From the NCBI GenBank assembly GCA_030448225.1, contig JAUJNJ010000059.1, forward strand, positions 8,240-42,884: a stretch of DNA of 34,645 nucleotides, written 5' to 3'. Each line of letters starts with the position of its first letter. Position 1 is the first letter of the stretch. The notes beneath the pieces were generated by a model. It made no database searches. It worked only from the letters and a program-made list of their open reading frames with translations, and had not been told where the DNA came from. Position numbers and translations under genes: made by a program. This DNA is from Phycisphaerae bacterium (GTDB lineage Bacteria; Planctomycetota; Phycisphaerae; Tepidisphaerales; Tepidisphaeraceae). This document shows positions 7,869 through 34,645 of this stretch, piece after piece.

Positions 7869-8351
7869 TCAATGTCGCCGGCTGGTGGCCTTGCGGAGCT
7901 CGCGGTCCATCTCGCGCTTGCGGATCGCGTCGCGCTTGTCGTGGTGCTTGCGCCCCTTGCCGACGGCCAGTTCCAGTTTGGCCCGACCGTTGACGAAGTA
8001 GATCGACAGCGGGATCAGGGCCGTGCCCTGCTCGCGGATCTCGTCGGCGAGCTTCTTGATCTCTCGCTTGTGGACGAGCAACTTGCGCTCGCGGAGCGGC
8101 TCGTGGTTGAGGATGTTCGCGTTGGCGTACAGGTCGATGTGCAGGCCGTGCAGGACGAGCTGGCCGTCCTCGATGCGGGCGAACGCCTCCTGGAGCTGGG
8201 CCTTGCCCGCCCGCAGGCTCTTGACCTCGCTGCCCATCAGGGCGATGCCGCACTCGAGTTTGGCGGTGATCGAGTACTCGTGCAGCGCCCGGCGGTTGTT
8301 GATCCGCGGCGACTCGTTCTTCTTGTCCTTCTTGCCCGCCATACCCGACAT
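7869..8351 (-). CDS. smpB: SsrA-binding protein SmpB
   Basis: SmpB carries tmRNA into stalled ribosomes during trans-translation. The protein is 160 residues, normal for the family. Recognisable blocks are NNRRALHEYSITAKLECGI, LMGSEVKSLRAGKAQLQEAF, HIDLYANANILNHEPLRERK, LLVHKREIKKL and GTALIPLSIYFVNGRAKLEL, followed by the basic tail with RKREMDRELRKA that inserts into the decoding centre. The gene is intact. The start is either 8351 (MSGMAGKK) or 8342 (MAGKK); neither has a good ribosome-binding site. No tmRNA gene was seen in the window. Confidence 0.95.
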   Translation of the reverse strand: MSGMAGKKDKKNESPRINNRRALHEYSITAKLECGIALMGSEVKSLRAGKAQLQEAFARIEDGQLVLHGLHIDLYANANILNHEPLRERKLLVHKREIKKLADEIREQGTALIPLSIYFVNGRAKLELAVGKGRKHHDKRDAIRKREMDRELRKATSRRH

Positions 8352-25258: not shown

Positions 25259-27709
25259 TCATCGGTTGAACAAAAACTCCTTGCTGCTCAGCAGGCTCCA
25301 GTACAAATCCTCCACGACCTCCCGTTTCTCCGCCGGCTTCGCCTCCGCCAGCACCGCCAGGATCGCCTTCGACTCCTCCGCCGTGGGCTTGCGGCTGAGG
25401 GCGGCGACGTAGGCCTGTTCCACGAGCTGGTCGTCCGGCGTCTTGGCGGCGAGCGCGCTCGACGACGCTGCCCTTGGCCCGCAGTTTCTGGTTCACCGTG
25501 TCGCCGTTGGCGATGTGGAGCACCTGGGCCATGCTCGGCTCTTTCGTCCGCTCGCACTCGCACGTGGCCTCGCGCACCGGGCGGCCGAAGGAGGCGAGGA
25601 AGTAGGACTCGACGTTCGTGTCGGGCAGTTGCGTCGCGCGCGCCAGCCGGCGGGGTAGTTCTTGAACTCGGTGGGGACGCCGGTGACCTGGCTGAACGCG
25701 TCGAGCAGCGTCTCGGCCATCATGCGGCGGGGGTAGTAGCGGCTGTAGAACCGGCGGTCGCCGGCGTTGCCGGGCAGGGGCTTGCTCGAGCGCTGATAGG
25801 TCTCGGACTGAAGGATGAGCCGCATGAGCGCCTTCAGGTCGAACTTCTGTTCCACGACGTGGGCGGCGAGGGCCGCCATGAGCTTCTCGTTGCTCGGCGG
25901 GTTCGTCTCGCGCATGTCGTCGACCGACTCGACGAGGCCGACGCCCATGAAGTTCGCCCACACGCGGTTGGCGATCGAGCGGGCGAAGGCGGGATTCTTC
26001 GGCGAGCAGAGCCAGTCGGCGAGGTACTCGCGACGGTCGCGCGTGGCGTCGGCGGGCACGGCGTCGCCCTCGAGCGGGCGGGGGGGCTGGGGCTTGCCGG
26101 TCAGCGGCTGGACGAGGTCACCCTCGTCGGCGGCGAAGACGACGCGCCCTGGCCGCCCTTCTTGCCGGTGCCGCCGTCGCCCTTGGTGCGGACGCGGGCG
26201 AAGAGGTTGGCCATGCCGTAGTACTGGTCGTTCGTCCACTTCTCCATCGGGTGGTTGTGGCACTTGGGCGCAGTTGATGCTCTGGCCGAGGAACGTGAGC
26301 GTGACCGTCTCGCTCATCTCGCGCGCGGGTCGTCGTGCAGCGCGAAGAAGCTGGCCGCGCCGTTCTCCGACGTGCTGCCGCGGGCGGTGATCACCTCGCG
26401 GGCCAGGGTGTCCCACGGCACGTTCCGGGCGACGCGGTCGCACCCAGTTGGAGTAGGCCCACATCGTGCCGGGCTTGGCCGCGACGCTGCTGACGAGAAG
26501 CAGGTCGGACCACTTGTACGTCCAGTAGTCGACGAACTCCGGCCGTTGCAGGAGCGCCTCGATCAGTGCGTCACGCTTGGCGCCCGAGGCGTCGGCGACG
26601 AAGGCCCGCGTCTCGTCCGGCGTCGGCAGCACGCCGATCGTGTCGAGGAACGCGCGGCGGACGAACTCCTCGTCGGCGCACCGCGGCGACGGCGGGAGGT
26701 TCAGGTCCTTCAGCTTGTCCAGCACGAGGTCGTCGACGAGGTTCCGCCGGGGGGCGGCGGCGAACGTCTCCGGCGGCACCGGCGTCGCGTAGGGCGAGGC
26801 GACGGTGGCGATGGCGATCTTGCTGAGGTACCACGCCGTGATCGCGCCCTCGCCGTGGCCGACGACGCTCACCTTGCCGGTTGCGTCTTCGACGGTCGCC
26901 ACACTCGTGTCGGCGGCGGTGTACTTCGCCCATCGGGTGACGTCCTGCGCGGAGCCGTCGTCGAAGTGGGCGCGGACGACGATCTGCTGCGCGTCGCCCG
27001 GCTTGAGGATCACGTGGTTCGGCAGGATCTCGATGCGCTGCACGCGCGCGTCGTCCGCCTTCGGCCCCGGCGCGCCGGCGGCGATCCACTCGCCGAGGAC
27101 GCGGTACTCGCGCGAGTCGGGCGCGAACCGCACGCCCCCCTTGTGCGGGACGGCGCCGGTCGCCTTCGTCACCAGCAGGCTGCTCGACGGATCGGCCGGC
27201 ACGATCCGCCGGCCCAGCGCGTGGCGGGTGAGGCTCCGCCAGTCCCCCTCGTCGTCGTACCCGCGGAGCGAGAGGCGGAACCCGTTCTGCCCCGCGGCCG
27301 CCCCGTGGCAGGCGCCGCTGCTGCAGCCGAACTTCGCCAGCACCGGCTGCACGTGATTGCGGAAACTCCACTCGAACGCCTCGCCCATTCCCGCGACGGT
27401 GACCTCCGCGACCGCGGTCGCACCATGCGATTGAACTGAGATGTGAGCGCGTCCGTTCGCGACCGGCACGGCGACGCCGGCCTCGATCTTCACGACCGCC
27501 GGGTCGCTCGACGAGAGGGCTAAGCCCTCCGTCACCTGCCCGAGCAGGCGAGAACCGTCGACGCGCTGCACGAGGAGCGTCTGCCGCGCCGCGGGGCCGT
27601 CGAGCGTGATCTCGGCCGGCAGCAGGGCGACGCCGGGTGCGGCGTGGGCGACGGACGTCCACGTCGTCAGAAGGATGATCGAGCAGAGCGTCAGGAACGG
27701 CTTCTTCAT
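25259..27709 (-). CDS. PSD1-type protein with DUF1549 and DUF1553 domains, frameshifted
   Basis: About 817 residues from ATG 27709, with signal peptide [21 protein letters not shown] Big-like beta domain precedes [20 protein letters not shown] (Cys129, Cys134, His135), a CX4CH haem-c-like motif. A second Big2-type domain follows at about 210-300. DUF1549 covers about 325-480 ([40 protein letters not shown]). DUF1553 follows ([60 protein letters not shown]). The true ending [17 protein letters not shown] precedes the TGA at 25259. Breaks fall near 26440, 26330, 26275, 26145, 25650 and 25465. It is exported; its function is unknown in all planctomycetes, but it typically pairs with DUF1501 genes. 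Confidence 0.88.
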
Positions 27710-27932
27710 GGTCGTCGTCTCGAACGTGCTTGAGCGAGCCGGGCTACCGCGGCGCGATCGGTGCGGGTCTTCGCGCCGCAATTGTCGTGTGGCGTACGGC
27801 CGACGAGTCACGTCGCCGCGCTCGCCACGCCTGAAGACATGTACGCTCACCGCATCCCCTCGCCGGCGCACCGGGAGGGTTTTTGTGAGTCGCCGCCGTC
27901 GCAGTCACGTCGCGCGGCGTCACGCGAACGCG

Positions 27933-29309
27933 TCAGAACAGTTCCTCGATCGCCTTCGTCCCGAAGTCCGCCACGGGGAACGGCCGGCCGGCGGGGCCGG
28001 GGAGTTCCTCGGTGAGGTCGACGCCGAGGCTGCGGTAGATCGTGGCGACGATCTCCGCCGGGGTGACCGGGCGCTCGGTCGGGTAGGCGCCCTTGTCGTC
28101 GCTGCGGCCCACCACGCGCCCGCCCTGCACGCCGCCGCCGGCGAAGTAGACCGTCCAGCACTGCGGCCAGTGATCGCGCCCGCCGGCGGGGTTGACGCGG
28201 GGCGTGCGGCCGAACTCGGCGAGGTTGCAGACCATCGTGTTGCCAAGCAAGCCGCGTCGGTCGAGGTCCTCGATCAGGGCGCTGTAGCCCTGGTCGTACA
28301 TCGGGCAGACGATCTCCTTCATCCCGGTGATCGACGTGAACGGGTTCGACCCGTGCACGTCCCAGGTGATCTCGTTGAAGACGGTGATGAACGTGTTGAC
28401 CGTCACGAACCGCACGCCCGCCTCGACGAGCCGCCGGGCGAGGAGGCACGACTGGCCGAAGCGCGTCATGCCGTAGCGCTCGCGGACGCTGTCGGGCTCC
28501 TTCGTGAGGTCGAACGCGTCGCGGGCGCGGGGGCTGGTCATCAGCTTGAACGCCGACGCGAAGTTCGCGTCCATCAGGGCCGCGTTCTCGCTCGACTCGA
28601 ACCCCTTGACGGCGCCCTCGACGATGTCGCGCAGCTTCTTGCGCCGCGCCACGCGCGCCTCGCCGATCTCGCTCGGCGGGAGCAGGTCGGGGACCTTGAA
28701 CCCCTTCTGAGACGGGTCGGCGTTCAGCACGAACGGGTCGAACCGCTTGCCGAGGAACCCCGCGTCCTGCCCGTGCGGCATGTTGCCGCCGGTCGGGCCC
28801 ATCGCCTGCGGCAGGATTACGTGGGCGGGCAATTCGTTGCGGCGGCCCTTGAGAAACTCCATCGCGCAGCCGACGTGCGGCGTGTTCACGCCGCCGCTGA
28901 ACAGCCGGCCCGTCTGCATCATCTGGTGGCCCGTGTCATGCACGGCGGCCGCGGTGTGGTAGCAGCTGCGCACGAGCGAGAACTTGTCGGCGATTTTCGC
29001 GTGCAGCGGCAGCAGCTCGGTGAGCTGGATGTCCTTCACGTTCGTGCGGATCGTCTTGAACGGACCGCGGATTTCCTCCGGCGCGTCGGGCTTGGGGTCG
29101 AAGAGGTCAATCTGGCTCGGCGCGCCGAGGTTGAAGATCATGATGACCGACCGCTCGTCGTGGCCCTGCTTCACCGCGCCCGCCGCCTGCATCGCCATGA
29201 GGTGGGGGAGCGACAGGCCGAGCGCGCCCAGCGCGCCGACTTGCAGGAAGTCGCGGCGGGTCGTGCCGTCGCAGGTCTGGGTGGATCCCCGGCCGGTGAA
29301 CTTGATCAT
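27933..29309 (-). CDS. DUF1501 protein, Tat-exported
   Basis: 458 residues, intact. The leader TTRRDFLQVGALGALGLSLP at residues 17-36 is a twin-arginine signal. The body resembles the alkaline-phosphatase/sulfatase-like DUF1501 fold: SVIMIFNLGAPSQIDLFDPK, SCYHTAAAVHDTGHQMMQTG, RRLVEAGVRFVTVNTF, GLLGNTMVCNLAEFGRTPRV and GRDHWPQCWTVYFAGGGVQG, with conserved His, Asp and Glu residues likely to bind metal. The start at 29309 is chosen because the Tat signal begins there; the longer open frame to 29561 is Arg-rich. The gene ends 223 bases before the PSD1 gene on the same strand with no terminator between, so the two may be co-transcribed, DUF1501 first. Confidence 0.93.
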   Translation of the reverse strand: MIKFTGRGSTQTCDGTTRRDFLQVGALGALGLSLPHLMAMQAAGAVKQGHDERSVIMIFNLGAPSQIDLFDPKPDAPEEIRGPFKTIRTNVKDIQLTELLPLHAKIADKFSLVRSCYHTAAAVHDTGHQMMQTGRLFSGGVNTPHVGCAMEFLKGRRNELPAHVILPQAMGPTGGNMPHGQDAGFLGKRFDPFVLNADPSQKGFKVPDLLPPSEIGEARVARRKKLRDIVEGAVKGFESSENAALMDANFASAFKLMTSPRARDAFDLTKEPDSVRERYGMTRFGQSCLLARRLVEAGVRFVTVNTFITVFNEITWDVHGSNPFTSITGMKEIVCPMYDQGYSALIEDLDRRGLLGNTMVCNLAEFGRTPRVNPAGGRDHWPQCWTVYFAGGGVQGGRVVGRSDDKGAYPTERPVTPAEIVATIYRSLGVDLTEELPGPAGRPFPVADFGTKAIEELF

Positions 29310-29920
29310 CGCCGCGTGCCCTCGTTTCCGCCGGTTGCAGAGACTCGCGGGCGGCCGAACGCATCGGAGGTCGGGCCGCCGGCTGACGTGATGCCGTGAG
29401 GCCCGCAACTTACCCCGTCGGGCCCGCCGCCTCCACCAAAATCGACTAAATCCGGCCGACGGCGGCAGCGGGGAACCGGTCACGACCGATAACGATCCGG
29501 CACGGCGGCCACGCGCCGAGTCCGAGCGGACGCTCCCGAAAGCGGGGTGATCCGTTTCCACGAATTCGGCCGGATTTGCGCTAACACGCCTATTGACACT
29601 ATTGCCGACCCCGCCTCATATACCCACCTTGATGCAGCTTGAGCCGCCGAAAACGCCCGTTCTGACGACGTTGACAGGAGCCGGGTTCCATCTCTCCGGC
29701 AGTCGAGCACGCCGCAGGCGCGCCGCGGGCGGCAGTGTCTTTACGATCCGTGTCGGACCGTCCGACGCGCGTGGGCTGCCGAGGCCTGGGCGCCCGGGGC
29801 CGCGCGGTCAGCCGCACCGAACAACACGTCACCCATCCAAGACAAGAGAGGCACGCGACACACGTCCCCACGTGGGGGAGCAGGCCGCGTCCGCCAGACA
29901 GTGAGAAGGAGTTCACGCAC
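29310..29920. other. Divergent intergenic region and long leader
   Basis: No supported gene. It separates the leftward DUF1501 gene from the rightward Calx-beta gene. It includes the candidate promoter at 29593-29622 and a leader of nearly 300 bases. I searched the leader by eye for known riboswitch motifs and saw none. Confidence 0.5.
29593..29622 (+). promoter_or_regulatory. Probable promoter of the Calx-beta gene
   Basis: A consensus -35 TTGACA (29593-29598) is followed after 18 bases by CATATA (29617-29622). The AT-rich pocket contrasts with the surrounding GC. Transcription would start near 29630, giving a leader of about 290 bases. Confidence 0.55.
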
Positions 29921-32900
29921 ATGAGCCGATCCACACCGCGCCCGAGCAAGACCCGCCTCCAACGCGCCGCCGCGACCGCCGTCGAGCGGCTGGAATGCCG
30001 CCGCCTGTTCGCCACGTTCGTCTGGGACGGCGGGGCGGGCGCCGATGACAACTGGACCACGCCGGCCAACTGGGTCGGCGAGGTCGCGCCGACGGGCGCC
30101 GCGGACGACATCCTGCAGTTCCCCGAGGACGCCGCCCGCAAGACCAACACGAACAACTTCCCCGACAACACGACGTTCGGGCAGATCCAGTTCACTGGCA
30201 CCGGCGGCGGCTACGCCCTCGGCGGCGCGCCGATCACGCTCGGCGGCAACATCGCCTCGTCGAGCACCGGCGCGCTCGCGAACATCGTTGACCTCGGCGT
30301 AACGCTCGGCGCCCCGCTCGCGTTCACGCAGGCCACCGGCGGCACGCTCCGCGTCTCGGGCGACGTTAACCTCGGCACGAACCTGCTGGAGACGACCCAG
30401 GGCGGCACGATCGAGCTCGAGGGCGTCGTCTCCGGGACCGGCACCGGCGCGACCGGCGGGATCGCCCGCCGCGGCGGCGGCGGCACCACGCTCATCGAGG
30501 GCGACAACACCTACACCGGCACGACGACCGTCGCCAGCGGCGGCACGCTCACCGTCAACGACCCCGCCGGCGGCACGTTCGCCACGGGCCTGAGCAACGT
30601 CTCCGTCTCCGGCTCGCTCCGCGGCAATGGCAGCGTCGGCGACCTCCGCCAAGTCACCTCGACCGGCCGCATCCTGCCGGGCGTCGTCTCCGGCGGCACC
30701 GGCGTGATCGCCACCGAGGACATCGAGACCGGCACCGGCGCGCAGTACACCGTCAACATCAACGGCGCTGACCCCGGCACCGGCTACGACCAGCTCAGCA
30801 CGACCGGCGCGGTCGACGTCAGCGGCGTCACACTCGAGGTGGACACGTTCGGCTCCGGCTTCACGCCGACGACCAATCAGCAGTTCATCATCGTCAGCAA
30901 CGACGGCACCGACCCGGTTAGCGGCACGTTCACCGGCGTCGCCGAGGGCGGGACGGTCACGGTCGGCGACGGCCCCGGCACGTTGACGGTCTCCTACGTC
31001 GGCGGCGACGGCAACGACGTGGTGCTGACCAACGGCACCGGCGGCGGCGGCGGCGGCGACGCCGGCGACCCGCCGGTCAACATCGTGCCCACCGCCGCCC
31101 AGACCGTCGCCGCCGGCGCGACGCTCACGTTCAACCAGGCCAACAACAACCGCATCACCGTCGCCGACGCCGACGCGGGCACCAGCCCGATTCAAGTCAC
31201 GCTCACCGCGACCGGCGGCACGATCGCGCTCGGCAGCGAGACGGGCCTGACGGTCACCGACGCCGACGGCGACGCCACCACCGCGTTCACCGGCACGGTC
31301 GACGCCGTCAACGCGGCCCTGGCCGGCTTGACCTACACCGCCGGCGCGACCGCCGGCAGCGGCAGCCTCCAGATCGCCACGAGCGACCAGGGCGCGACCG
31401 GCACCGGCGGCGTGCAGACCGACACCGACACGGTCCCGATCACGATCACCACCGGTGGCGGCGGCGGCGAGGAGAACGACGCGCCGGTCATCACCGTCCC
31501 CGGCGCCCAGACCGCGTCGCAGAACACCCCGCTGGTCTTCTCCACCGCCAACGGTAACGTGGTCTCCGTCGCCGACACCGACGCCGCCGCCGGCGACGTC
31601 GCCGTCACGCTCGCCGCGACCAACGGCACGATCAACCTCGGCTCCACCACCGGCCTGACGTTCACGACCGGCGACGGGACGGGCGACGCCAACGCCGCGT
31701 TCACCGGCACGCTGGCCGAGGTCAACGCGGCCCTCAACGGGCTCTCGTTCCAGCCGACGACCGGGTTCGTCGGCGCCGGCGGCCTGCAGGTCACGGTCAG
31801 CGACCAGGGCGCGACCGGCACCGGCGGCGCCAAGACCGACACCGAGAACGTGGCGATCACGATCGGCTCGGCCGGGAACATCGCGTTCAGCGCGGCCAAC
31901 TTCGACGTCGACGAGAACGCCGGCGTCGCCACCGTCACCGTCACGCGCACGGACACCGCCGGCGCCGCCACCGTCGACGTCACCACGTCGGCGGGCACCG
32001 CGACCGAGGGCGACGACTACGCCGAGGGCACCGGCACCGTCTCGTTCGCCGACGGCGCCGGGACCGCGACGTTCAACGTCACGATCGTTGACGACATCGT
32101 CGACGAGGACAACGAGACGGTCACCGTCACGCTCAGCAACCCGACCGGCGCCGTCTCGCTCGGCGCGCAGACGGTCTCCACCGTCACGATCGTCGACGAC
32201 GACCCGACGCCGACGCTCACGATCAACAACGTGACCGTCGCCGAGGGCGAGAGCGAGACGGCCGACGCGTCGTTCACCGTCCTGCTCTCGGCCGCCAGCG
32301 CCCGCGAGGTGACCGTGACCTACGCGGCCGGCGGCGGCACGGCCGTCGTCGTCCAGGACTACACCGCGACCACCGGCACGCTCACGTTCGCGCCCGGCGA
32401 GACGCAGCAGGTCATCAGCGTCCCCGTGGTCGGCGACACGTTCGACGAGGAGGACGAGACGTTCGAGGTCACGCTCACCGCGCCGACCAACGCGACGCTC
32501 GACGACGCGACCGGCACCGGCACGATCGTCAACGACGACGCGGACGGCCCGATCGGCGTGTTCATCAACGACGTGATCGTCGAGGAGGGCGACGAGGGCT
32601 CGTCCGACGCGACGTTCAACGTCGAACTGTCCCGCGCGCTGCCCGAGGGCATCACCGCCACGGTCGACTACGCCACCGACAACGGCAACGCGACCGCGGG
32701 CGAGGACTACGGCGCCCGCACGGGCACGCTGTCGTTCAGCGGCACGACGACGAGCCAGAACGTCGCCGTCCCGATCACGGCCGACACGGTTGACGAGCCG
32801 AACGAGACGTTCACCGTCAGGCTCACCGCGCCGGTCAACGTCGCGCTGGCCGACGCGACCGCAACGGGCACGATCGTCGACGACGACGTGCCGGTCGGCG

Positions 32901-34213
32901 TCACGATCGACGACGTGACGATCACCGAGGGCGAGAGCGGCACGTCCGACGCGACGTTCACCGTCACGCTCACCGCCGCCAGCACGCAGCCGGTCAGCGT
33001 GCGGTACGCGACGGCGGACAACACCGCCATCCGCCTGCTCGACTACACCGAGTCCACCGGCACGCTGTCGTTCGCGCCGGGCGAGACGACCAAGGAGGTC
33101 GTGGTCCCGGTCGTCGGCGACGCCAGCGCGGAGCCGACCGAGACGTTCTTCGTCAACCTGTCGAACCCCCAGAACGTGACGCTGACCGACGCGCAGGGCG
33201 TCGGCACGATCGAGGACGCCGACGCGGGCGCAGGGCCCGAGGCCGTCGACGACCAGGTCACCCGCCCGACCGGCGCCGCGCCGGTCGTGATCACCGTGCT
33301 GGCCAACGACGCGGCCTTTGCCGGCCAGACCGTGACCGTCACGCTGACCGAGGAGCCGACCAACGGCACGGCGGTCGTGAACCCGGACAACACGATCACC
33401 TACACGCCGGGCACCGGCTCGACGGCCAGCGCGCCCGACTTCCTCACCTACCGCGTGAGCGGGCCCGACGGCGACGCCGAAGGCGACGTCAGCATCTACG
33501 TGACCGGCGTCACCGCCGGCCCCAACCCGTCGAACCCGCAGCAGACGGCGCTGTTCATCGCCGGCGACACCGGGGCAAACCGGATCACGGTCGGCCGCCG
33601 CCGCACGCAGCTCAGCATCCGCATCGACCGCAACGCGCCGCAGCTGTTCGACATCCCGACCGGGCAGGTCATCATCGTCGGCGGCGACGGCGACGACCGC
33701 ATCACCCCCGGCGGGTTCCGCGGGCCGGTCCGCATCTTCGGCGGCAACGGCAACGACCGGATCAGCGGCGGGCGGTTCAGCGACGTGCTGATCGGCGGCG
33801 CGGGCGACGACCGCATCGCGGGCGGGCTCGGCCGGAACATCATGATCGGCGGCGCCGGCGCCGACCGCATCAACGGCGGCCGCGAGGACGACATCCTCAT
33901 CTCGGGCCAGAGCGACTTCGACGTCGACAGCCCCGACAACCGCACCGCGCTGGCGGCGATCTTCAACGAGTGGGTCGGCGCCGGGCCGTACGCGACCCGC
34001 GTCACCAACATCACCGGCACCGCCGGCGTCGGCGAGAGCGGCGCCGGGTTCAACGCCACGTCCACGCTCGACGACGCCAGCGAGGATCGCCTCGTCGGCG
34101 GCGGCGGAACCGACCTGTTCCTGGCCAACCAGCAGGGCGGGACGATCGTCGACCGCGTGACCCTCCAGCGCCGCCCGGCGCCGGAGACCCTTGTCGACCT
34201 CACCAACGAGTAA
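29921..34213 (+). CDS. Giant secreted Calx-beta / cadherin-like / RTX-like surface protein
   Basis: 1430 residues, unbroken, from ATG 29921 with AAGGAG nine bases upstream. VERLECRRLFA at 21-31 is a variant of the planctomycete LEPR-XLL motif near the N-terminus of surface proteins. Residues 34-360 hold beta-helix-like segments (DDNWTTPANWVGE, GDNTYTGTTTVASGGTLTVN), as in autotransporter-associated repeats. Two cadherin-like modules follow (about 384-510, 520-648), each opening with TLTFNQANNNR or similar. Four Calx-beta domains (653-761, 766-873, 875-988, 990-1100) carry VDENAG or EGESGTSDATF and VDDD. A further Ig-like domain spans 1106-1200. Then RTX-like Ca-binding turns appear (GGDGDDRI, GGNGNDRISGG, GGAGDDRIAGG) at about 1240-1310. 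It probably acts as a calcium-dependent adhesin or matrix protein. Confidence 0.92.
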   Translation: MSRSTPRPSKTRLQRAAATAVERLECRRLFATFVWDGGAGADDNWTTPANWVGEVAPTGAADDILQFPEDAARKTNTNNFPDNTTFGQIQFTGTGGGYALGGAPITLGGNIASSSTGALANIVDLGVTLGAPLAFTQATGGTLRVSGDVNLGTNLLETTQGGTIELEGVVSGTGTGATGGIARRGGGGTTLIEGDNTYTGTTTVASGGTLTVNDPAGGTFATGLSNVSVSGSLRGNGSVGDLRQVTSTGRILPGVVSGGTGVIATEDIETGTGAQYTVNINGADPGTGYDQLSTTGAVDVSGVTLEVDTFGSGFTPTTNQQFIIVSNDGTDPVSGTFTGVAEGGTVTVGDGPGTLTVSYVGGDGNDVVLTNGTGGGGGGDAGDPPVNIVPTAAQTVAAGATLTFNQANNNRITVADADAGTSPIQVTLTATGGTIALGSETGLTVTDADGDATTAFTGTVDAVNAALAGLTYTAGATAGSGSLQIATSDQGATGTGGVQTDTDTVPITITTGGGGGEENDAPVITVPGAQTASQNTPLVFSTANGNVVSVADTDAAAGDVAVTLAATNGTINLGSTTGLTFTTGDGTGDANAAFTGTLAEVNAALNGLSFQPTTGFVGAGGLQVTVSDQGATGTGGAKTDTENVAITIGSAGNIAFSAANFDVDENAGVATVTVTRTDTAGAATVDVTTSAGTATEGDDYAEGTGTVSFADGAGTATFNVTIVDDIVDEDNETVTVTLSNPTGAVSLGAQTVSTVTIVDDDPTPTLTINNVTVAEGESETADASFTVLLSAASAREVTVTYAAGGGTAVVVQDYTATTGTLTFAPGETQQVISVPVVGDTFDEEDETFEVTLTAPTNATLDDATGTGTIVNDDADGPIGVFINDVIVEEGDEGSSDATFNVELSRALPEGITATVDYATDNGNATAGEDYGARTGTLSFSGTTTSQNVAVPITADTVDEPNETFTVRLTAPVNVALADATATGTIVDDDVPVGVTIDDVTITEGESGTSDATFTVTLTAASTQPVSVRYATADNTAIRLLDYTESTGTLSFAPGETTKEVVVPVVGDASAEPTETFFVNLSNPQNVTLTDAQGVGTIEDADAGAGPEAVDDQVTRPTGAAPVVITVLANDAAFAGQTVTVTLTEEPTNGTAVVNPDNTITYTPGTGSTASAPDFLTYRVSGPDGDAEGDVSIYVTGVTAGPNPSNPQQTALFIAGDTGANRITVGRRRTQLSIRIDRNAPQLFDIPTGQVIIVGGDGDDRITPGGFRGPVRIFGGNGNDRISGGRFSDVLIGGAGDDRIAGGLGRNIMIGGAGADRINGGREDDILISGQSDFDVDSPDNRTALAAIFNEWVGAGPYATRVTNITGTAGVGESGAGFNATSTLDDASEDRLVGGGGTDLFLANQQGGTIVDRVTLQRRPAPETLVDLTNE

Positions 34214-34251
34214 CCGCCGACGAGAATCCCCACGCAACGCACCCTCAACCC

Positions 34252-34287
34252 ACCCCCGGCGCCGCAAGGCGCCGGGGGTGCTTTTTT
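34252..34287 (+). terminator. Intrinsic terminator after the Calx-beta gene
   Basis: ACCCCCGGCGCC and GGCGCCGGGGGT pair perfectly around the tetraloop GCAA, followed by GC and six T. It lies 38 bases after the stop codon. It is the strongest terminator in the window. Confidence 0.95.
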
Positions 34288-34469
34288 CGACCCCACGATC
34301 GCCCCGCAGCGTCCCGACTTCAGCGGGGACGCGAACGACACGAGCGACGCGACACAAGCTTCACATGGCGGGAACCACCCGTTGCGTCGTCCATCTCACC
34401 GTCGAAAACGACGTCCAAAAAACCGTCGGGTCGCGGAAAATTTCCTCGATCCCTCCGCTCCACCCGGCG

Positions 34470-34475
34470 TATGAT
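34470..34475 (+). promoter_or_regulatory. Candidate -10 box for the structured RNA
   Basis: TATGAT matches the -10 consensus at five of six positions and stands alone in GC-rich DNA, five bases before the first hairpin at 34480. No good -35 was found. Confidence 0.4.
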
Positions 34476-34479
34476 TGGA

Positions 34480-34645
34480 GCGTCCGACACGGTGAAACGG
34501 GTCGGACGCGAAAGCGGCCTTCAGATGCGGATCTGGAAGGTCGCCTTGGTGCCCGGCAAGGCGTTGCCGGGCGGTATAGCCCGGAGGCGGGCAGTAGAGG
34601 GCCACACTAAGGCCGGAGTCCCAGGATCGACGTGAGTCGATGCCC
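34480..34645 (+). ncRNA. Putative structured RNA running off the window (possibly HEARO/omega-RNA-like)
   Basis: Six consecutive hairpins lie within 162 bases. H1: GCGTCCGAC with GTCGGACGC (34480-34509). H2: GCGGCCTTCAGAT with ATCTGGAAGGTCGC (34514-34544, one bulge). H3: GCCCGGCAA with TTGCCGGGC (34551-34572). H4: GCCC with GGGC (34579-34592). H5: GGCC with GGCC around ACACTAA (34600-34614). H6: ATCGAC with GTCGAT capped by the GNRA loop GTGA (34626-34641). Stem perfection is far above neighbouring DNA and protein frames here are unconvincing. The order hairpin, GGTATAGCCCG, CGGGCAGTA, small stem, GGAGTCCC recalls the HEARO (omega) RNA that precedes IscB genes. That match is from memory; no IscB gene is visible because the window ends. 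Confidence 0.45.

What the first reader, a model, noticed from the sequence alone, without database searches (positions are those of the whole stretch)
34470..34645. Dense multi-hairpin RNA candidate at the window edge, possibly an omega-RNA
Seen: six tandem hairpins in about 160 bases (perfect 9-bp stems at 34480-34509 and 34551-34572, a GTGA-capped stem at 34626-34641), five bases after a TATGAT box and after a strong terminator closing the previous gene. No credible protein frame explains it. Known: HEARO/omega RNAs are compact structured RNAs placed just upstream of IscB, the HNH nuclease ancestor of Cas9. Inference: the segment GGTATAGCCCG ... CGGGCAGTA ... GGAGTCCC resembles my recollection of that RNA class, which would make the window edge the start of an RNA-guided nuclease locus. 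If not HEARO, it is an unexplained structured RNA.
Basis: partly seen in the sequence, partly recalled or inferred. Interest (0 to 1): 0.7.

Follow-up and report, generated by a model that had tools for sequence, protein, structure and literature searches.

The report
Ribosome-binding structured RNA of planctomycetes
The hairpins at the window edge are the first part of an unnamed structured RNA gene, present as one copy per genome in many planctomycete bacteria of one class, which carries a near-perfect ribosome-binding site and a tiny reading frame and so probably works by holding a ribosome.

Summary
Window 34470-34645 is the 5' ~165 nt of a larger RNA cut off by the record's end. BLAST finds it once each in three close relatives (E 1e-15 to 1e-19). 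Complete homologues (261-504 nt from -10 box to terminator in the 8 of 12 with a box) have covarying helices.

The missing 3' part is the surprise: a 9-15-nt complement of the 16S rRNA 3' tail in 107 of 109 distinct elements, then a 6-23-codon frame (107 of 109 at most 15) stopping at or in a covarying stem. Peptides differ between clades, but the start-to-stem distance changes mainly by whole codons. A covariance model finds it in 141 of 397 class genomes. Downstream genes point either way, 24:24.

No Rfam family matches at its cut-off. Caulobacter sRNA CC2171 (RF01867) gives sub-threshold matches over the element, and its alphaproteobacterial members share the 16S complement and a mini-ORF: a distant relative or convergence.

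Best reading: a stand-alone RNA that captures a ribosome and translates a mini-ORF to reset its own fold. RNA family: strong; mechanism: inferred.

The parts
34470..34475 (+). -10 box TATGAT of the RNA gene's promoter
   Evidence: A CGTATNNT-type box stands just before the first hairpin in 7 of 10 aligned rows, the window included (read by eye). Transcription not tested.
34480..34509 (+). 5' hairpin 1, perfect 9-bp stem
   Evidence: Fold. Hairpins of differing sequence stand at the same place in L102, L107 and L108 (read by eye).
34514..34544 (+). 5' hairpin 2 with inner TCAGATGCGGATCTGGA
   Evidence: Fold. Inner part kept in L105 and, less exactly, L107 and L109 while outer stems differ (read by eye). 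BLAST identity with L057 (same place as L105) starts here.
34549..34574 (+). Core hairpin with invariant AAGGCGTT centre
   Evidence: In the 9 homologues of A5: 9 pairs, 5 with changes on both sides, 100% of cells paired. AAGGCGTT invariant with the window in the 10 rows of A4.
34579..34592 (+). 5' arms of the core long-range helices: GCCCGG (34579-34584) and GCGGGC (34587-34592) with an internal loop between them; 3' arms lie beyond the window
   Evidence: Partners seen in homologues; 90.7% and 97.8% of cells paired, but mostly invariant, so weaker evidence.
34597..34601 (+). 5' arm GAGGG of a long-range helix; partner CCCTC (after CAGTCA) lies beyond the window
   Evidence: All 5 pairs change on both sides in at least one of 9 sequences; 95.6% of cells paired.
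34606..34624 (+). Conserved linker ACTAAGGCCGG..TCCCAG
   Evidence: ACTAA invariant and several further columns invariant or nearly so over the 10 rows of A4.
34626..34641 (+). GTGA-capped hairpin
   Evidence: Hairpins of differing sequence at the same place in L103, L104, L105, L107, L108 (read by eye).

Best explanation
The window edge is the 5' part of a mostly single-copy, stand-alone structured RNA gene found in many genomes of the planctomycete class Phycisphaerae (class name from record titles of the nearest relatives). SHOWN by sequence comparison: a -10 box and an intrinsic terminator in most members looked at; a folded 5' domain; then a 9-15-nt complement of the 16S rRNA 3' tail placed as a Shine-Dalgarno; then a mini-ORF whose stop lies in, or directly before, the 5' arm of helix P1. 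INFERRED: a 30S subunit docks on the over-long Shine-Dalgarno, translates the mini-ORF and terminates on the 5' arm of P1, melting P1 (and probably P2). The RNA is thereby a ribosome-anchored switch: with an active ribosome the 3' domain is open; without one P1/P2 close. What the folded 5' domain does (bind a protein, pair with a target, or present itself on the ribosome) is unknown. The peptide itself is probably not the product. The alphaproteobacterial sRNA CC2171 has the same core plan and may work alike.
For: Homology of the window part: E 1e-15 to 1e-19 in G001-G003, aligned in A4. Covariation of the 3' domain: 19 of 25 pairs change on both sides over 48 sequences, 92.7% of cells paired against at most 56.7% when slid (alignment fitted to the model). 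5' domain, plain MAFFT alignment of 9, helices picked by me from these same sequences: 11 of 25 pairs with double changes, 96.4% paired against at most 55.6% when slid. 16S complementarity: 9-15 nt in 107 of 109 distinct elements, 67 with 12 or more; the tail GGCTGGATCACCTCCTT is present in 12 of 12 genomes tested. Mini-ORF: start 9-13 nt from the first G of GGAGG and an in-frame stop in 109 of 109, 6-23 codons, 107 at most 15; starts GTG 88, ATG 13, TTG 8. Of 50 distinct elements of the first set, 48 have 8-15 codons in frame 0 against 0 and 3 in the other frames. Frame conservation: start-to-stem distance 20, 23, 26 or 29 nt in 82 of 89 elements with an exact GCTGC arm; the 7 others are at 21 or 24 nt and in 6 of them a stop stands right before the stem. 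Single copy: each of the 141 matching genomes has one match, except G001 with two at contig ends that break inside the RNA. Not a leader: nearest downstream gene + in 24, - in 24 of the 48 of 51 loci that have one (tallied). Recurrence: 5 of 5 CC2171-family loci from Alphaproteobacteria have a 9-15-nt 16S complement and a 24-26-codon frame, (V/M)SHC....
Against: No transcript, ribosome-profiling or protein evidence. R1 and R2 contain the Shine-Dalgarno, so its presence in hits is partly selected; the stop placement is less so. L111 (23 codons, hairpin insert) and L147 (17 codons) break the short-ORF rule; L239 is off-frame without the early stop; L149 and L235 have only 6 and 7 nt of unbroken complement. 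The Shine-Dalgarno is not predicted to be more open than its 175-nt context (mean unpaired probability 0.356 against 0.354). GGAGGTGATCC also occurs elsewhere: 2-12 sites per genome in 12 genomes, 16S and the element included. R2 finds the RNA in only 141 of 397 class genomes (stricter filters, incomplete MAGs, or true absence). A terminator was found by a simple heuristic in 47 of 60. The 3' part is not seen in the window itself (R2: no match). The resemblance to CC2171 may be convergence on the universal 16S tail.
Confidence: 0.55

Rival explanations
1. Ribosome sponge, a translational counterpart of 6S RNA: an abundant RNA that occupies the anti-Shine-Dalgarno of 30S subunits and lowers initiation globally; the mini-ORF only lets trapped ribosomes leave.
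For: Complement covers up to 15 nt of the 16S tail; the TTGACA/TAAAGT-like promoters of some members (L134, L142, read by eye) suggest strong expression.
Against: One gene copy would have to outnumber ribosomes; the strict stop placement at P1 is not needed for a sponge.
Confidence: 0.15
2. Messenger for a functional micro-peptide with long structured UTRs.
For: A frame is kept in nearly all members; within clades the peptide is similar (CDC..GL, IG.LP). In the CC2171 family the start (V/M)SHC is kept in 5 of 5.
Against: Between clades length and sequence change freely, e.g. VKGDKR, VTIGEQTRWLR, MVGTIGELL; the common end -GLL/-LP coincides with the P1 arm.
Confidence: 0.13
3. Trans-acting base-pairing sRNA whose mini-ORF is incidental or serves stability (dual-function sRNA).
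For: Stand-alone gene with -10 box and terminator; variable 5' hairpins could carry seeds; the distant look-alike CC2171 is filed as an sRNA in Rfam.
Against: Frame and stop conservation argue that translation matters. No search for seeds was made.
Confidence: 0.1
4. Cis-acting leader-peptide attenuator for the next gene.
For: Leader-peptide-like ORF; four alternating GCTGC/GCAGC arms, one mismatch allowed in each, in 88 of 109 elements, 44 exact; terminator behind it.
Against: Downstream gene orientation is 24:24 and gene families differ between clades. No shuffled control was made for the arm pattern.
Confidence: 0.06
5. Omega-RNA / HEARO of an IscB-type nuclease.
For: Dense hairpins only.
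Against: No RF02033 match; no such nuclease among 20 downstream neighbours, 9 of which have no Pfam hit; single copy.
Confidence: 0.01

Closest known systems
CC2171, Caulobacter sRNA (Rfam RF01867)
   Same: AAAGGAGGUGAUCCAGUG-type 16S complement plus start codon; behind it, in 5 of 5 alphaproteobacterial loci, a 24-26-codon frame with TAA, TAG or TGA stops; a helix that takes in the early codons, and a terminator hairpin (model structure). Sub-threshold matches (22-37 bits, cut-off 75) over the element in L130, L135, L141 and in 8 of 20 further loci.
   Different: CC2171's model starts about 12 nt before the complement, so it has no 5' domain, the part that the window holds; its frame is longer and its main helix (AUUGUC/GACAAU) is another. 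R2 scores CC2171-family loci at 12-16 bits only, mostly on the Shine-Dalgarno.
Ms_IGR-5, Actinobacteria sRNA (Rfam RF02471)
   Same: Consensus begins GGAAGGAgGugGuCcGag, a partial 16S complement; sub-threshold match over the element in L130 (30.2 of 45 bits) and L221 (22.7).
   Different: Below cut-off, 2 loci only; its reading frame was not examined.
HEARO / omega-RNA (RF02033)
   Same: Compact multi-hairpin RNA.
   Different: No model match, no such nuclease seen, single copy, has its own Shine-Dalgarno and mini-ORF.
tmRNA (RF00023)
   Same: Structured RNA with a short frame and, in the order of G001, a T-loop-like hairpin (GGTGNRANTCC).
   Different: tmRNA lies at other loci of the same order (20 of 26 over cut-off); here the frame has its own Shine-Dalgarno and start codon.
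Leader-peptide attenuators (trp, his, erm type; recalled)
   Same: Short ORF whose ribosome would occlude one arm of a hairpin.
   Different: No regulated downstream gene: orientation 24:24.
6S RNA (RF00013)
   Same: Conceptual parallel: an RNA that may occupy a core machine.
   Different: Different RNA; 6S candidates lie at other loci in 8 of 26 genomes, 1 over cut-off.
Rhodopirellula-1 motif (Genome Biol 2010 11:R31, PMC2864571; one table row seen)
   Same: Candidate structured RNA listed for Planctomycetes.
   Different: Listed for Proteobacteria and Planctomycetes, no Rfam accession in that row; sequences not available here, so not compared.

Membership tests
CC2171 (RF01867) | Score over the family's gathering cut-off (75 bits) | tested here: not met
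   Best 37.0 bits (L233, E 0.00015); others 22-30 bits or not listed.
CC2171 (RF01867) | 16S-tail complement directly followed by a start codon and short frame | tested here: met
   Elements. CC2171-family loci: 5 of 5. That this defines CC2171 is my observation, not Rfam's.
CC2171 (RF01867) | Common descent | tested here: inconclusive
   Similarity centres on the 16S complement, which convergence could give.
HEARO / omega-RNA | Match to RF02033 | tested here: not met
   Not listed at E up to 10, 0.5 or 1.
HEARO / omega-RNA | IscB/IsrB/TnpB-type gene next to it | tested here: not met
   20 nearest downstream proteins of homologues, 11 with Pfam hits. Window's own downstream DNA not available.
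tmRNA | Match to RF00023 / ARAGORN | tested here: not met
   tmRNA elsewhere.
RNase P RNA | Match to RF00010 | tested here: not met
   Found at other loci in 22 of 26 genomes of the order.
SRP RNA | Match to RF00169 | tested here: not met
   Found at other loci in 20 of 26.
6S RNA | Match to RF00013 | tested here: not met
   Candidates elsewhere, 8 of 26 at E<=0.01.
Leader-peptide attenuator | Co-directional regulated gene directly downstream | tested here: not met
   24 same, 24 opposite strand of 48 loci (own ORF caller).
Leader-peptide attenuator | Ribosome on short ORF would mask one arm of mutually exclusive helices | tested here: inconclusive
   Stop lies at -3 to +16 nt from the P1 arm in 88 of 89; alternating arms in 88 of 109 (no shuffled control).
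Dual-function sRNA | Translated ORF plus base-pairing targets | not testable with these tools
   No transcriptome or target data.
Rhodopirellula-1 motif | Sequence/structure match | not testable with these tools
   Alignment not in the passage seen.

The most novel reading that the evidence does not exclude
A bacterial RNA machine built on the ribosome: an RNA that pairs with nearly the whole free 3' tail of 16S rRNA, is translated over a mini-ORF for the sake of translation rather than the peptide, and uses the terminating ribosome to switch its own fold, so that it reports or controls ribosome availability in trans. The same plan in alphaproteobacterial CC2171 would make it a type of RNA found in two phyla and not yet recognised as such.
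Probability: 0.4. Interest if true: 0.88.

Novelty: new variant of a known kind. Interest (0 to 1): 0.75.

Why it matters
Structured RNAs that occur as a single copy through much of a bacterial class, outside the housekeeping set, are rarely found. Here the most conserved part is a ribosome docking site and a reading frame whose existence, not sequence, is kept. The same plan hides in the named but unexplained sRNA CC2171 of Alphaproteobacteria, so Caulobacter or Methylobacterium laboratory strains offer a direct test of whether bacteria keep RNAs that work by being translated.

Tried and rejected
Omega-RNA/HEARO: rejected. Plasmid and phage relatives of the window part: one chance-level plasmid match (E 0.5, 34 bases), no phage match. 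Exact DNA patterns in genome and viral contigs: none. Housekeeping RNAs: rejected. Internal pairing of GGAGGTGATCC with CAGTCACCCTC: considered by eye and dropped, because in L104 the second segment changes, in step with the GAGGG arm, while the first stays. Conserved neighbour gene: none over clades; an ABC-transporter-like protein (by eye) occurs somewhere within several kb in 11 loci and EF-G downstream in 5, at 174-3163 nt. SD accessibility: no signal. Literature: searches gave nothing on such an RNA (listings; passages only of PMC2864571, PMC11701678 and PMC12559287). Of the 9 papers that hold the word CC2171 five were listed; the one on RNA, the Rfam 15 paper, names it once in a table. 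Subscription papers are not held, so absence from print is not shown.

Counting notes. The 109 distinct elements are 111 loci (12 full-length order members, 39 further R1 hits, 60 R2 hits) minus exact duplicates. The 60 R2 hits are mainly the best-scoring of those new, plus some weak ones; the other new hits were not fetched. With a naive first-start rule 50 of these 60 gave 8-16 codons; the rule preferring ATG/GTG at 10-13 nt was adopted afterwards. A first count of complementarity used one base more than the 16S pattern had verified; one search replaces it. Many loci are close relatives, so counts are not independent. Of six CC2171-like plasmid loci fetched from 21 matching records, five match RF01867 at E 0.01 or better, two of them over its cut-off; L266 does not and was left out of the 5 of 5.

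Changed after the report check: sub-threshold Rfam matches seen had been left out; following them up brought in CC2171, and I lowered the novelty rating from categorically new for that reason.

Full report
OBSERVATION. The opposite strand folds almost as well (z -6.1), so energy alone decides nothing about strand. For the end of the window Rfam lists four matches at E up to 10, all far below their cut-offs; over the whole window only a tRNA-Leu passes.

FINDING RELATIVES. The window has no genome on hand. Its SmpB (window 7872-8342, minus) is closest to four MAGs, three titled Phycisphaerales (62-68% identical) and one Planctomycetota (65%). Searching ten genomes reached through SmpB hits with window 34430-34645 gave one strong match each in G001, G002 and G003 (E 1.0e-17, 2.6e-19, 4.8e-15), and nothing better than 0.05 elsewhere. 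All three are followed by the same conserved stretch. Using that stretch, 14 of 26 genomes of the order matched at E<=0.01; one of these, G017, matched at a place without the element and looks like chance. With covariance model R1, 16 of the 26 match, G017 now at another place.

ANATOMY. Twelve complete elements show: a -10 box of the type CGTATNNT in 7 of 10 rows compared, window included; one or more variable hairpins in most; a hairpin with invariant AAGGCGTT; the helix GCCYGG/CUKGGC with an asymmetric internal loop (CG opposite GRCGG) and a second helix GCG../..CGC; in nine (with the partial L105) a long-range helix GAGGG/CCCTC; then GGAGGTGAT, the mini-ORF, helices P1 and P2, and an intrinsic terminator. 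In the order of G001 the P2 loop carries an extra hairpin with a T-loop-like sequence GGTGNRANTCC. L112 and L114 are compact (242 nt from the AAGGCGTT hairpin to the terminator, against 293-428 in the other ten), with the middle part missing.

COVARIATION. On a plain MAFFT alignment of nine 5' domains 96.4% of cells pair and 11 of 25 pairs change on both sides; slid controls reach at most 55.6% and 4 pairs. The helices tested there were picked by me from the same sequences, which favours them. All five pairs of the GAGGG/CCCTC helix covary. For the 3' domain of 48 sequences 92.7% of cells pair and 19 of 25 pairs change on both sides, against at most 56.7% and 8 for slid controls; that alignment was fitted to the model and leans towards it.

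DISTRIBUTION. Model R1 matched 52 of 397 class genomes at E<=0.001 and 3 of 392 phylum genomes. Model R2, built from 48 of the elements found, matched 141 of 397 class genomes at E<=0.01 and 14 of 392 phylum genomes: 11 that are also in the class sample and 3 (G539, G572, G584) of unknown class. How many phylum-sample genomes belong to the class is not told, so this is only a rough outside control. Each matching genome has one match, G001 alone two at broken contig ends. Both searches used stricter filters and the genomes are often incomplete, so absence in the other class genomes is not shown. E-values of such models are rough.

THE 16S COMPLEMENT AND THE MINI-ORF. The 16S tail GGCTGGATCACCTCCTT is present in 12 of 12 genomes tested. 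Against its 17-nt complement, 107 of 109 distinct elements hold an unbroken match of 9-15 nt and 67 hold 12 or more; L149 and L235 hold 6 and 7. After it comes GTG (88), ATG (13) or TTG (8), and in all 109 an in-frame stop after 6-23 codons, 107 within 15. In the first 50 distinct elements 48 have 8-15 codons in this frame, against 0 and 3 in the other two. The distance from start to the GCTGC arm of P1 is 20, 23, 26 or 29 nt in 82 of the 89 elements with an exact arm. In the other seven it is 21 or 24, and six of those end the frame with a stop directly before the arm. So indels keep the frame, and where a clade is out of that frame it has a different stop. The peptide is not kept between clades. 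I read this as selection for translation itself and for the place where the ribosome stops. Exceptions are L111, L147 and L239.

THE NEAREST KNOWN RNA. At Rfam cut-offs nothing matches. Below them, Caulobacter sRNA CC2171 (RF01867, cut-off 75 bits) is listed over the element in L135 and L141 (29.1, 26.3 bits), L130 (22.0) and 8 of 20 further loci (22.0-37.0 bits, best E 0.00015), and Actinobacteria sRNA Ms_IGR-5 in L130 and L221 (30.2 and 22.7 of 45 bits). Others (McaS, rnk_pseudo, STnc310) fall mainly on terminators. The CC2171 consensus reads AAAGGAGGUGAUCCAGUGUCUCAU. A BLAST with its first 46 positions found 21 plasmid records of Alphaproteobacteria; of six loci fetched, five match RF01867 (68-84 bits, two over the cut-off). 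All five have a 9-15-nt 16S complement followed by a frame of 24-26 codons beginning (V/M)SHC and diverging afterwards, with TAA, TAG or TGA stops. So the plan '16S complement, mini-ORF with a helix laid over it, terminator' exists in a second phylum. R2 scores these loci at only 12-16 bits, and CC2171 has no 5' domain. Descent and convergence cannot be told apart here.

NOT A LEADER, NOT ANOTHER KNOWN RNA. By a codon-usage ORF caller the nearest downstream gene is on the same strand in 24 and on the opposite in 24 of 48 loci (my tally; three of 51 had none). Gene families differ: EF-G, YebC, UvrA, PurD, DNA polymerase X, peptidase S9 and others; 9 of 20 tested have no Pfam hit, none of the hits is a nuclease of the IscB/TnpB kind. 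RNase P, tmRNA, SRP and 6S candidates of the order lie elsewhere.

MECHANISM. Shown: a stand-alone RNA, covarying helices, 16S complement, frame and stop conservation. Inferred: ribosome docking through an over-long Shine-Dalgarno, translation of the mini-ORF, and opening of P1/P2 by the terminating ribosome. In 88 of 109 elements four alternating arms of the GCTGC/GCAGC type follow each other, one mismatch allowed in each (44 exact), which would allow a 1:2+3:4 versus 1:4+2:3 switch; this was not controlled by shuffling and fails by eye in several members of the clade of L150, L153 and L157. The SD is not predicted to be especially open. The role of the 5' domain, and hence the output of the switch, is unknown.

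LIMITS. The window itself contains only the 5' ~165 nt; that its 3' part has the ribosome site is inferred from relatives (R2 finds nothing in the window). No expression data were available.

Noticed in passing
L261-L265 (Methylobacterium, Azospirillum, Sphingobium, Skermanella plasmids): CC2171-family sRNA loci encode a 24-26-codon frame beginning (V/M)SHC behind a 9-15-nt 16S complement, a feature that no call showed as described.
   Followed up: partly
window 29735-34213 (+): Large protein with four Calx-beta stretches, a bacterial Ig domain and an RTX calcium-binding repeat; its terminator at about 34251-34287 precedes the RNA gene.
   Followed up: partly
L105 end and L106 start (G001): The G001 assembly breaks inside the same RNA; the overlapping ~30 bases differ at one position, so two strains, a second copy or an assembly problem. 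The window's record also ends inside it.
   Followed up: no
L103, L104, L108, L109, L185: An EF-G gene lies downstream of the RNA at 174-3163 nt in five loci, including one from a distant clade.
   Followed up: no
12 genomes: 2-12 exact GGAGGTGATCC sites per genome, 16S and the element included; the others may be genes with an over-long Shine-Dalgarno.
   Followed up: no
L112, L114: Compact form of the RNA with the middle section missing, divergent from a guaB-like gene (MEHSKILHDAITFDDVLL, name recalled from sequence).
   Followed up: partly
L111, mini-ORF: A 19-nt hairpin insertion inside the mini-ORF breaks the usual frame yet leaves P1/P2 intact.
   Followed up: no
window 27936-29561 (-) and 25496-27871 (-): DUF1501 gene next to a PSD1/PSCyt2 (DUF1553/DUF1549) gene; this pairing is typical of planctomycetes (recalled).
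   Followed up: no
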